Source: Desulfitobacterium dichloroeliminans LMG P-21439
GTDB lineage: Bacteria; Bacillota; Desulfitobacteriia; Desulfitobacteriales; Desulfitobacteriaceae
Length of the DNA stretch: 64,000 nt
Assembly: GCF_000243135.2 (NCBI RefSeq)
Contig: NC_019903.1
Span: 410,001-474,000 of the forward strand
Direction: 5' to 3'
The notes beneath the pieces were generated by a model. It did no database searches. It was given only the letters and a program-made list of their open reading frames with translations, and was not told the DNA's origin. The translations under genes and the position numbers were made by a program. Position 1 is the first letter of the stretch; the number at the start of each line of letters is the position of its first letter. This document shows, in pieces, positions 27,843-37,712 of the stretch.

Positions 27843-27849
27843 ATGTAGG

Positions 27850-28073
27850 TAGCGTGATGAAGGGAAAGAGTAAGAAGAGTCCTTTGCTCAAGAGAGGATG
27901 GAGCAGGTGGAAACCATCCCCAAGGATCTTTTGAAGTGCATCCCGGAGCGTGAGATGAATGGCTAGGCCATTCTCCGTAAGGCTGCGTTAAGGCCATGAG
28001 TGGAACGGGAAACTGTTCAATCAGAGTGGAACCGCGGAAACCTTTCGTCTCTGGACGAAGGGTTTCTTTTTTA
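27850..28073 (+). ncRNA. T-box leader, probably tRNA-Cys responsive
   Basis: Classic T-box parts are visible: a Stem I apex (AGAGAGGATGG with GGTGGAAACCATCC), a specifier candidate TGC at 27937-27939 in GAAGTGCATCC, the antiterminator T-box AGAGTGGAACCGCGG (28023-28037), and a terminator stem 28037-28049/28054-28066 followed by a T-run. The T-box bulge reads TGGA, not the common TGGT, so it pairs with a tRNA whose discriminator base is U. tRNA-Cys has U73. Together with a TGC specifier and cysE-cysS downstream, the amino acid is cysteine. Uncharged tRNA-Cys would allow read-through. Confidence 0.92.
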
Positions 28074-30956: not shown

Positions 30957-31628
30957 TTGAACGTTGAACTGATTCAATACACCCCGGACCCGGAGAAAGT
31001 CATTGCGGCGGCAGCTCGTTTATGTTACTCGCCTGATCCTGTTCCCGAGTTACTGGAACGATTAGATGATGAAAAGGTGGCCGACTTTGTCCAAAAATTG
31101 CGCTCCATGGGCCATCTTTCACCCTTTGAGCACATTAGCTTTCAATTCTCCATCGATGGTGTATCCCGGGCTTTGTCCCATCAATTGGTTCGCCATCGGA
31201 TCGCTAGCTATTCACAACGCTCCCAGCGATATGTTAAAGAAAGTGGCTTTGAATTTGTCACTCCCCCTAGCATTCGTAGAAATCCCCAAGCTCTAGAGCG
31301 TTTTGAAAAGGTTATGAACACTCTCCAAGAGGAATACCAGGCCTTACTGGACGTAGCTCCGGCAGAAGATGCGCGCTATATCCTGCCCAACGCCTGCACC
31401 ACCTCTTTAATGGCAACCTTTAATGCACGCTCCTTAATGAACTTCTTCGAACATAGAACCTGCATGCGCGCCCAATGGGAGATTCGCATCCTCGCTGAAA
31501 GAATGCTCGAGCTCGCACGGGAAGTGGCTCCTAATGTCTTTGGGCAAGCCGGCCCGACTTGCGTTACTCAAGGCGTTTGTCACGAAGGGGCTATGAGTTG
31601 TGGGCGGATAAAGGGGCTTAGGAAGTAG
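30957..31628 (+). CDS. thyX: Flavin-dependent thymidylate synthase ThyX
   Basis: A 223-residue FAD enzyme making dTMP from dUMP with methylenetetrahydrofolate and NADPH. The signature RHRxxSxxxxSxR is seen in LVRHRIASYSQRSQRYV (about residues 77-93). The C-terminus has FEHRTCMRAQWEIR. It starts at TTG 30957, 8 nt after AGGAGG. It stands between the 20-bp tandem array and the paired structured repeats. Confidence 0.95.
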   Translation: MNVELIQYTPDPEKVIAAAARLCYSPDPVPELLERLDDEKVADFVQKLRSMGHLSPFEHISFQFSIDGVSRALSHQLVRHRIASYSQRSQRYVKESGFEFVTPPSIRRNPQALERFEKVMNTLQEEYQALLDVAPAEDARYILPNACTTSLMATFNARSLMNFFEHRTCMRAQWEIRILAERMLELAREVAPNVFGQAGPTCVTQGVCHEGAMSCGRIKGLRK

Positions 31629-31641
31629 CTTCGTGAGGGGT

Positions 31642-31947
31642 CTCCAGGATTTTGTTTTACCCCGCTCACTCGGTAAGCTGCGCGGACAAAACTAATCGCT
31701 CAAGCTCTCCGCTCCATCGGTACCTGCGCCGCTAAGTTTTCGTCTGTGGCGTTGCGGCTTGGGCGAAAGCCTCATCCGGCTTTCGTCCCGGCTAAATCGG
31801 CTCCTCGAAAGCACTGCTTTCGCACTTGTTCTCGTAGCCGGTTGGAAACGTCCTGTTTCCAACCCGATTCCGCTGCATGCTTTTCGCGAAGTTTTGTTTC
31901 CGCTCGCTTAAAAGTCGCTCACTCTTGTAAATCAAAATCCTTGGGTT
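31642..31947 (+). repeat. Structured non-coding element, copy A
   Basis: A 306-nt element with nested helices. P1 is CCAGGATTTTGTTTTA (31644-31659) with 31928-31944. P2 is TAAGC/GCTTA (31674, 31906). P3 is ACAAAACT/AGTTTTGT (31686-31693, 31890-31897). P4 is CGGCTA/TAGCCG (31789-31794, 31835-31840), and P5 is CGAAAG/CTTTCG (31806-31822). P6 is GTTGGAAAC-gtcct-GTTTCCAAC (31841-31863). A further hairpin GGGCGAAAGCC/GGCTTTCGTCC (31761-31788) is absent from copy B. Conserved unpaired blocks are AATCGCTCAA, CTAAATCG, CGCACTTGTT and TTTTCGCGAAG. No protein is convincingly encoded. I do not recognise the family. Confidence 0.8.
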
Positions 31948-31951
31948 ATCT

Positions 31952-32170
31952 CTGAAGGTTATCTAGGTAGGCTTTCAAGGCTTTAAGTAATTCTTTGTAA
32001 GACACTAAACAAGTTACATATTCTTACTAAACGAACGCATGAACGGCAAAGGTATCCCTTACTAGAATGACAAGTTTCCTTATCTGCTCGGGTACTAAAA
32101 TCGCCTTTGGCTCTTAGTCTATCTGCAGTATTTTGAGTTGCTTCGTTGCAAGTTCTATACCGTGTGAGCA
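31952..32170. other. Spacer between the two structured elements
   Basis: 219 bp lying between copies A and B. Short frames on both strands lack ribosome sites and known domains. No transposase or recombinase fragment could be recognised. Confidence 0.4.
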
Positions 32171-32423
32171 AACCCAAGGATTTTGTTTTAGCGGAGAGAA
32201 CGGCTTTAAGCGAGCAGCTACCCGTTCTTCGCGAAAATCTAACCACGGAGTCTGGTTGGAAACAGGACGTTTCCAACACGCTAGAGAGCCAAACAAGTGC
32301 GAAAAGCTCGCCCGCTTTTCGGGATGGCGATTTAGCGTGGAACCAGACGCAGTGGATAGGTTGAGCGATTAGAACGGGTGCGCGCAGCTTACGGAGTGAG
32401 CGGGGTAAAACAAAATCCTGGAG
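32171..32423 (-). repeat. Structured non-coding element, copy B (inverted)
   Basis: A 253-nt diverged copy in reverse orientation. Read on the minus strand, P1 is a near-perfect 16-bp stem (32406-32421 with 32174-32190). P2 is TAAGC/GCTTA, P3 is AGAACGGGT/ACCCGTTCT (32371-32379, 32220-32228), and P4 is CACGCTA/TAGCGTG (32333-32339, 32277-32283). P5 is CGAAAAGC/GCTTTTCG (32300-32321) and P6 is GTTGGAAAC/GTTTCCAAC (32255-32277). P3, P4 and P5 differ in sequence from copy A but remain paired. The outer 43 bp match copy A as an inverted repeat with one mismatch. Confidence 0.8.
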
Positions 32424-32492
32424 AATTACGACAAAATGCTCTTCTACCCAAACGCCTCAAACGGAGGCTAATGAAAGGACTGACCCTAACGC

Positions 32493-33230
32493 ATGAACGA
32501 AGAAATCGTATACGGCCGTAACGCCGTCTGGGAACTCCTCCAATCAGGTAAGCCCGTCAACAAACTGCTCTTCCAATCAGAAGGCACTGGCGGTCGCTTC
32601 CAAGACATGGTTAGCCATGCTCGAGGGCAGCAAATTCCCTTCCAATTTGTCGACAAAGTCGCCTTGGACCGCTTGACAGAGAAAGCCAAGCATCAAGGTG
32701 TTTTAGCTTACGCCTCTCCTCGAGAATATGCTGAGGTGGAGGACATCCTAGCTTTGGCAAAAGAAAAGGAAGAAGATCTCTTTATCCTTGTTCTGGATGA
32801 AGTAGAAGATCCTCATAATCTAGGTGCTCTCATTCGGACTGCCGATGCAGCTGGAGTCCACGGGGTGATTATCCCGAAGCGCCGTAGCGTATCGCTTACC
32901 TCAACCGTAGCTAAGACTTCTGCAGGTGCCATAGAGCATGTCTTGGTAGCTCGGGTAGGGAACTTAGTCCAGACCTTAAAGGACCTCCAAAAGGCTGGTT
33001 GTTGGGTGTCTGGAGCCGAAGCAGGTGGAACTGAGGTTTATCGCTCAGATCTTACAGGCCCTAGAGTGATTGTTGTAGGCAGTGAAGGAAAGGGCTTGAG
33101 CCGACTGGTCAAGGAAACCTGTGATGAAATAATAAGCCTTCCCATGAGGGGTCAGATTAATTCTTTAAATGCCAGTGTCGCCGGATCCATTTTATTATAT
33201 GAAGTTGTCCGTCAGCGGAGCGGAAAATAG
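32493..33230 (+). CDS. rlmB: 23S rRNA (guanosine-2'-O-)-methyltransferase RlmB (TrmH/SpoU family)
   Basis: A 245-residue SPOUT methyltransferase. The N-terminal substrate-binding domain has YGRNAVWELLQSGKPVNKLL. The catalytic knot shows LDEVEDPHNLGALIRTADAAG (motif 1 with the RNA-contact asparagine and arginine), VVGSEGKGLS (motif 2) and SLNASVAGSILLYE (motif 3). It is expected to methylate G2251 of 23S rRNA, although some Firmicutes paralogues have other targets. ATG 32493 follows AAAGGA at a rather long spacing. The mrnC-thyX-rlmB-sigH order is common in Clostridia. Confidence 0.9.
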   Translation: MNEEIVYGRNAVWELLQSGKPVNKLLFQSEGTGGRFQDMVSHARGQQIPFQFVDKVALDRLTEKAKHQGVLAYASPREYAEVEDILALAKEKEEDLFILVLDEVEDPHNLGALIRTADAAGVHGVIIPKRRSVSLTSTVAKTSAGAIEHVLVARVGNLVQTLKDLQKAGCWVSGAEAGGTEVYRSDLTGPRVIVVGSEGKGLSRLVKETCDEIISLPMRGQINSLNASVAGSILLYEVVRQRSGK

Positions 33231-37542: not shown

Positions 37543-37554
37543 CTAAACGAATTG

Positions 37555-37643
37555 AATAGCCTTCCACTGTAGACAGCAGGGGCTCTTGTAGCTTAATATC
37601 CTGCCGAGGTTGAAGAGATAGCCTTAAATTATTGGGCCTTCTT
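37555..37643 (+). ncRNA. Ribosomal protein L10 leader
   Basis: A leader upstream of rplJ with the L10(L12)4-binding pattern: CCACTGTAGACAGCAGGGGC, a helix, CCTGCCGAGGTTGAAGAGAT, and the TTATTGGGCCTTCTT linker. L10-L12 binding is expected to favour the terminator that follows. Family assignment is by recall of the motif; edges are approximate. Confidence 0.85.
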
Positions 37644-37672
37644 AACCTCTGCAGTCAAGCGGAGGTTTTTTA
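37644..37672 (+). terminator. Attenuator terminator in the L10 leader
   Basis: AACCTCTGC (37644-37652) pairs with GCGGAGGTT (37659-37667), followed by TTTTTT, 40 bp before rplJ. Confidence 0.85.
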
Positions 37673-37712
37673 ATGAGTGTGAGTCGTATCGTTCGGAAGG
37701 AGGTGGACTTAA

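What the first reader, a model, noticed from the sequence alone, without database searches (positions are those of the whole stretch)
31642..32423. Inverted pair of structured non-coding elements with covarying helices
Seen directly: two copies (306 and 253 nt) in opposite orientation between thyX and rlmB share a skeleton of nested helices. P3 is ACAAAACT/AGTTTTGT in copy A and AGAACGGGT/ACCCGTTCT in copy B (given in + strand order), completely different sequence but perfectly paired. P4 is CCGGCTA/TAGCCGG against CACGCTA/TAGCGTG, with two base pairs covarying, and P5 also re-pairs. Unpaired blocks (AATCGCTCAA, CTAAATCG, CGCACTTGTT, TTTTCGCGAAG) and hairpin P6 are conserved. That pattern means selection on the fold, so this is a structured RNA or a folding-dependent mobile DNA. 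There is no transposase, no clear target duplication and no family I can name.
Basis: seen in the sequence. Interest (0 to 1): 0.8.

Follow-up and report, generated by a model that had tools for sequence, protein, structure and literature searches.

The report
Repeated folded RNA-like CsrA decoys
Two mirror-image copies of a folded, non-coding DNA/RNA element lie between two genes; they belong to a large, scattered family related to the orphan "TwoAYGGAY" RNA, and its loops and species distribution suggest that it soaks up the regulator protein CsrA.

Summary
Copy A (31642-31945) and copy B (32168-32423, opposite strand) are two of about 20 dispersed copies in this genome, with 20-30 or more in each of several relatives and diverged full-length homologs across the phylum. 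Covariation is strong (0 of 500 shuffles reach the observed score). The block holding A and B is missing from the thyX-rlmB junction of four relatives, and convergent pairs recur elsewhere.

The family can be named. Diverged homologs found with a covariance model built from these copies match Rfam RF01731 (TwoAYGGAY, an orphan RNA of 2010) on the opposite strand at the same loci. The window copies do not themselves reach the Rfam score, so this is a divergent relative, not a filed member.

Read on the RNA strand, all 119 copies tested carry a GGA hairpin loop, often CAGGACG or CAAGGAUG, the CsrA-binding motif. Genomes with these elements nearly always have csrA (66 of 68, against 219 of 330 without; p 1e-8). 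Best reading: dispersed, non-autonomous hairpin elements whose transcripts bind and titrate CsrA. Binding and transcription are not shown. G-U pairs are not favoured on either strand, which keeps a DNA-level palindrome (mobile or template-switch maintained) as a serious rival.

The parts
31642..31945 (-). Copy A (304 nt). Strand given is the RNA-like strand (purine-rich loops, TwoAYGGAY sense)
32168..32423 (+). Copy B (256 nt), inverted relative to A; RNA-like strand is +
31646..31660 (.). P1 outer arm of A (AGGATTTTGTTTTAC), pairs with 31927-31941
   Evidence: I6, 93% complementary
31927..31941 (.). P1 inner arm of A
32177..32190 (.). P1 inner arm of B, pairs with 32406-32419 (100%)
   Evidence: I7
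32406..32419 (.). P1 outer arm of B
31686..31693 (.).
31890..31897 (.).
32220..32228 (.).
32371..32379 (.).
31840..31864 (-). P5 hairpin of A; on the RNA strand GGUUGGAAAC-AGGAC-GUUUCCAACC, the CsrA-like CAGGACG loop
   Evidence: motif from PMC7652899
32254..32278 (+). P5 hairpin of B, same CAGGACG loop (loop AGGAC 32264-32268)
31806..31822 (.). Optional hairpin module in the P4 loop of A (CGAAAGCACTGCTTTCG, followed by CACTTGTT)
32300..32321 (.). Optional hairpin module in the P4 loop of B (CGAAAAGCGGGCGAGCTTTTCG + CACTTGTT when read on -)
31946..32167 (.). Spacer between the two copies, not structured as a whole (z +2.4); contains a leftover P4-like hairpin at 32094-32118 (ACTAAAATCGCCTTTGGCTCTTAGT)
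31629..32470 (.). Block absent at the thyX-rlmB junction of four relatives (approximate ends; contains A, spacer and B)

Best explanation
The pair A/B belongs to a large family of dispersed, non-coding, nested-hairpin elements of the TwoAYGGAY (RF01731) superfamily. SHOWN: multi-copy in this genome and its relatives; same skeleton with optional modules; strong covariation; absent from this site in four relatives; convergent inverted pairs recur; homologs match TwoAYGGAY on the opposite strand. INFERRED: the elements spread as non-autonomous units by an unknown enzyme. INFERRED: where transcribed on the purine-rich strand, the RNA is a rod of helices with purine-rich (tandem G-A type) internal loops that displays GGA in one or two hairpin loops (CAGGACG, CAAGGAUG), so that each element can hold CsrA, and the set of copies acts as a dispersed CsrA decoy, a Bacillota counterpart of CsrB/RsmZ.
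For: About 20 copies in the own genome and 20-30 or more in congeners. The covariance model hits 32/46 genomes of the own family and 26/398 of a phylum draw. Rfam RF01731 matches R1-found homologs at 44.8 and 43.4 bits (gathering score 43) and others just below it, on the opposite strand at the same loci. Unpaired positions are 74-77% purine on that strand. GGA terminal loops there: 119/119 copies have one or more, 87/119 two or more; only 8 of 317 loops on the other strand have GGA. CsrB repeats are CAGGA(U/A/C)G in hairpin loops and the CsrA consensus is RUACARGGAUGU (PMC7652899). TwoAYGGAY was proposed as a CsrA-binding sRNA with tandem GAs (PMC4333381). csrA co-occurs with the elements: phylum 66/68 against 219/330, p 1.2e-8; own family 30/32 against 5/14, p 8e-5; at least 90% complete 25/25 against 4/10, p 1.3e-4; one genus 24/25 against 1/5, p 9e-4. 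A Y1 transposase control shows no association, p 0.41.
Against: No binding or transcription data. No promoter-like site in 31550-32520. Within helices G-T and A-C mismatches are equally rare (16 against 23 cells; 23 against 30), unlike the RNA controls, where G-U is 15% of sense pairs, so the helices look like DNA palindromes. CsrA SELEX ligands mostly had four or fewer stem pairs (PMC7652899), while P5 here has about nine. The commonest window-type loop, CAGGACG, lacks the R of the SELEX consensus. The csrA association is not corrected for phylogeny or motility. Overall GGA number per element is only slightly above mononucleotide shuffles (8.5 against 6.2). The window copies do not reach the Rfam score.
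Confidence: 0.45

Rival explanations
1. A non-autonomous mobile DNA (MITE or REPIN-like): the fold matters as single-stranded DNA or cruciform, recognised by a transposase acting in trans; A and B with their spacer are one composite unit with long structured inverted ends. No RNA function.
For: Dispersed intergenic copies; whole block absent at the same junction in four relatives and copy k absent in two; convergent pairs recur in other genera, e.g. alpha+/beta- and beta+/alpha- and alpha-spacer hairpin-gamma composites in two congeners; helices Watson-Crick only, no wobble preference.
Against: No target duplication signal over 74 copies; no Y1/RAYT transposase in the own genome or G009, both rich in copies; no copy with a gene inside found; loops conserved across a phylum on one strand with CsrA-type GGA motifs are not explained.
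Confidence: 0.3
2. Covariation is mainly mutational: replication template switching between the arms of quasi-palindromes keeps the stems perfect without selection on RNA; the elements are passive palindromic repeats.
For: G-T and A-C mismatches equally rare, on neither strand preferred; template switching is known to create and fix hairpins (PMC8794818); deletions run between short direct repeats in the loops (copies n, r and 3460584).
Against: At low divergence one-sided changes dominate (1.38 against 0.23 compensated per pair below 6% divergence) and compensated ones accumulate later, as in stepwise compensation; internal loops stay unpaired and conserved across the phylum, whereas template switching should also make them palindromic.
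Confidence: 0.15
3. A structured RNA of the TwoAYGGAY superfamily with a function unrelated to CsrA (for example a scaffold or an mRNA 3' or 5' stabiliser).
For: RF01731 is listed by its discoverers as probably RNA, not cis-regulatory, function unknown (PMC2864571); copies lie at gene starts and gene ends alike.
Against: Loop sequences match the CsrA consensus and the elements track csrA across genomes.
Confidence: 0.1

Closest known systems
TwoAYGGAY RNA, Rfam RF01731 (Weinberg et al. 2010)
   Same: Two-hairpin junction with GGA loops, purine-rich internal loops, long outer stem, same strand; the two models hit the same loci in G089, G296, G301, G324 and G356.
   Different: Window copies score below the Rfam threshold; extra nested helices and optional modules; many dispersed copies, convergent pairs and several P1 subfamilies are not part of the Rfam description that I could read.
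CsrB/RsmZ-type CsrA-sequestering sRNAs
   Same: GGA in hairpin loops, including CAGGACG identical to the CsrB repeat (PMC7652899).
   Different: One to three GGA loops per element instead of about 18, spread over some 20 loci; longer stems; different phylum; no known transcription or regulator.
MITEs, REPINs and other structured bacterial interspersed repeats
   Same: Short, multi-copy, intergenic, palindromic, no ORF, insertion polymorphism.
   Different: No target duplication found, no Y1 transposase in the host, conserved loops across a phylum with freely re-pairing stems.

Membership tests
TwoAYGGAY RNA (RF01731) | Rfam covariance score of 43 bits or more for the window copies | tested here: not met
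   No RF01731 match in the window region or 12 further loci up to E 10 except 26.8 bits in L166
TwoAYGGAY RNA (RF01731) | Homology through intermediates: loci found by the model of the window family also match RF01731 on the same RNA strand | tested here: met
   L213 44.8 and L212 43.4 bits; same coordinates
TwoAYGGAY RNA (RF01731) | Two hairpin loops with GGA closing a junction | tested here: inconclusive
   Two or more GGA loops in 28/51 genus-level and 59/68 distant copies; A and B clearly show one (CAGGACG)
TwoAYGGAY RNA (RF01731) | Tandem G-A in a stem | tested here: inconclusive
   Symmetric purine-rich internal loops on the RNA strand can be read as tandem G-A by eye; overall purine fraction of unpaired sites 0.74-0.77
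CsrA-sequestering sRNA | Binds CsrA | not testable with these tools
   Needs gel shift or CLIP
CsrA-sequestering sRNA | Occurs in genomes with csrA | tested here: met
   66/68 against 219/330
CsrA-sequestering sRNA | Independently transcribed | tested here: inconclusive
   No sigma-70-like match near A/B; no RNA-seq
MITE / REPIN | Terminal inverted repeats, no ORF, many copies | tested here: met
MITE / REPIN | Target-site duplication | tested here: not met
   No flank match above shuffled pairing over 74 copies
REPIN | Y1 (RAYT) transposase in the genome | tested here: not met
   PF01797 absent from G000 and G009

The most novel reading that the evidence does not exclude
A mobile, multi-copy, genome-wide CsrA sponge: a transposable-element-like family that spreads as convergent hairpin pairs and whose scattered transcripts together set free CsrA in Bacillota that are thought to rely on FliW alone.
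Probability: 0.28. Interest if true: 0.85.

Novelty: new variant of a known kind. Interest (0 to 1): 0.62.

Why it matters
TwoAYGGAY has been an orphan RNA since 2010. This links it to a large family of dispersed, modular elements, gives comparative-genomic support to the 2014 CsrA proposal, and raises the possibility that CsrA activity in Bacillota is tuned by tens of repeat-borne decoys. It also makes a general question testable: whether 'RNA-like' covariation in repeats is selected or produced by template switching, because G-U and A-C mismatches are equally rare here.

Tried and rejected
Rfam on the window itself: nothing real. Phage and plasmid records: no match; exact-pattern scans of viral and genome contigs: none. 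RAYT/Y1 partner: absent in the host. Autonomous copy with a gene inside: solo halves at 3460584, 1139225 and 3075057 are deletion or truncation products; clustering of flanking ORFs gave only local gene clusters, no shared partner. Target duplication or palindromic target: no signal; the empty site at copy k is too diverged for an exact junction. Cis-regulation of a common gene: copies face gene starts and gene ends about equally. Strand by G-U content: symmetric.

Full report
OBSERVATION. The sequence shows copy A at 31642-31945 and copy B at 32168-32423 in opposite orientation between thyX and rlmB, with the helices exactly as quoted. Both fold far better than shuffles on either strand; the 222-nt spacer does not.

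A FAMILY, NOT A PAIR. Blast of A and B against the own genome (3.62 Mb, one contig) gives about 20 full copies plus fragments. They share conserved unpaired blocks, while stems differ and re-pair. Sizes of 143-145, 217-220, about 253 and 283-314 nt reflect optional nested modules. One copy (2882920-2883160) has the whole outer stem replaced: GCTTCTCACACA/TGTGTGAGAAGC instead of GGATTTTG/CAAAATCC. A covariance model from 49 copies (R1) finds the family in 32 of 46 genomes of the own family, in none of the other families of the same order that were searched, and in 26 of 398 genomes drawn from the phylum, mostly as full-length multi-copy hits. Formal counts: 158 against 44 two-sided cells in 49 copies and 628 against 176 in 80 diverged copies, 0 of 500 shuffles each.

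ARRANGEMENT AND SPREAD. Copies are intergenic and face gene starts and ends about equally. Convergent pairs recur: in several genera the partner is a related subfamily with a different outer stem (beta, GAGTTGCGTTACAG/CTGTAATCGCAACTC), 77-332 nt away. In two congeners the unit reads alpha, spacer hairpin, gamma in inverted orientation. In G001, G002, G003 and G009 thyX runs directly into rlmB and the whole block 31629-32470 is missing; copy k is missing from two congeners. So the block was gained here or lost repeatedly elsewhere; gain is simpler (inference). I found no target duplication, no copy with a gene inside, and no Y1 transposase in the host. One copy position, beside an FtsW/RodA-like gene, looks shared between genera, so some copies are also inherited in place.

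NAMING IT. Rfam finds nothing in the window, but the diverged homologs do match: RF01731 TwoAYGGAY, 44.8 and 43.4 bits with a gathering score of 43, always on the strand opposite to R1. Searched independently, RF01731 and R1 hit the same loci in G089, G296, G301, G324 and G356. The RNA-like strand is therefore the reverse of copy A's + strand. This agrees with purine-rich loops (74-77%) and better folding of that strand in 111 of 119 copies. Because the window copies fall short of the Rfam score, I call them a divergent relative in the same superfamily, not members.

FUNCTION. Gardner and Eldai proposed in 2014 (PMC4333381; authors' names from memory) that TwoAYGGAY binds CsrA. Three results here bear on it. 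First, on the RNA strand every one of 119 copies has a GGA terminal loop and 87 have two or more; the other strand has almost none (8 of 317 loops). The loops CAGGACG, CAAGGAUG and CAUGGAUG match or nearly match the CsrB repeat CAGGA(U/A/C)G or the core of the SELEX consensus RUACARGGAUGU (PMC7652899), while the stems below them change freely. Second, genomes with the elements have csrA in 66 of 68 cases against 219 of 330 without (p 1.2e-8); in the own family 30/32 against 5/14; in genomes at least 90% complete 25/25 against 4/10; within one genus 24/25 against 1/5. As a control, Y1 transposase shows no association (p 0.41). Third, many bacteria with CsrA lack known antagonising sRNAs (PMC4894983), so the place is vacant.

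WHAT DOES NOT FIT. Inside helices, G-T and A-C mismatches are equally rare, whereas T-boxes of the same genome plus an L10 leader and two tRNAs show 15% G-U on the sense strand and 8.5% on the antisense. An RNA selected on one strand should tolerate G-U there. This points to DNA-level palindromes, kept either because a recombinase or cruciform needs them or by template switching (PMC8794818). Against pure template switching, one-sided changes dominate at low divergence. No promoter-like site lies near A or B, P5 is longer than the best CsrA ligands, and the csrA association is not corrected for ancestry or motility.

VERDICT. Identity as a dispersed TwoAYGGAY-superfamily element: about 0.9. 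CsrA decoy as its function: about 0.45. A mobile DNA without RNA function is the main rival.

Noticed in passing
window 32094-32118: The spacer holds ACTAAAATCGCCTTTGGCTCTTAGT, a P4-like hairpin, probably the remnant of a third copy between A and B.
   Followed up: partly
G000:C1:94572-94599 (L143) and 1685395-1685422 (L144): The small hairpin module CGAAAGCACTGCTTTCG + CACTTGTT also occurs alone, outside the element, as if separately mobile.
   Followed up: no
G000 whole chromosome: All 18 listed own-genome model hits lie in 2.72-3.62 Mb and 0-0.59 Mb, i.e. in one 41% arc; in G003 they are spread more evenly.
   Followed up: partly
L164 6998-9111 (G009); also L066, L067, L153-L156, L165: Element pairs sit in a sugar-nucleotide biosynthesis cluster (Gfo/Idh-like oxidoreductase, DegT-like aminotransferase, hexapeptide acyltransferase; names read from sequence only) in several genera; in G009 two near-identical pairs lie about 1.6 kb apart with a gene between them.
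   Followed up: partly
L131, L128, L125, L094, L096, L099: Two further subfamilies share the core loops but have other outer stems: beta (GAGTTGCGTTACAG) and gamma (GTAGCTTTACGCACA); R1 finds beta weakly, gamma was found by eye.
   Followed up: partly
window 27848-28055 and 37549-37680: Ordinary T-box leader and ribosomal protein L10 leader (Rfam).
   Followed up: no
L174 1329-1873: Element copy nested inside what scores as a split T-box (68.5 bits, below gathering), so an insertion into a T-box leader is possible.
   Followed up: no
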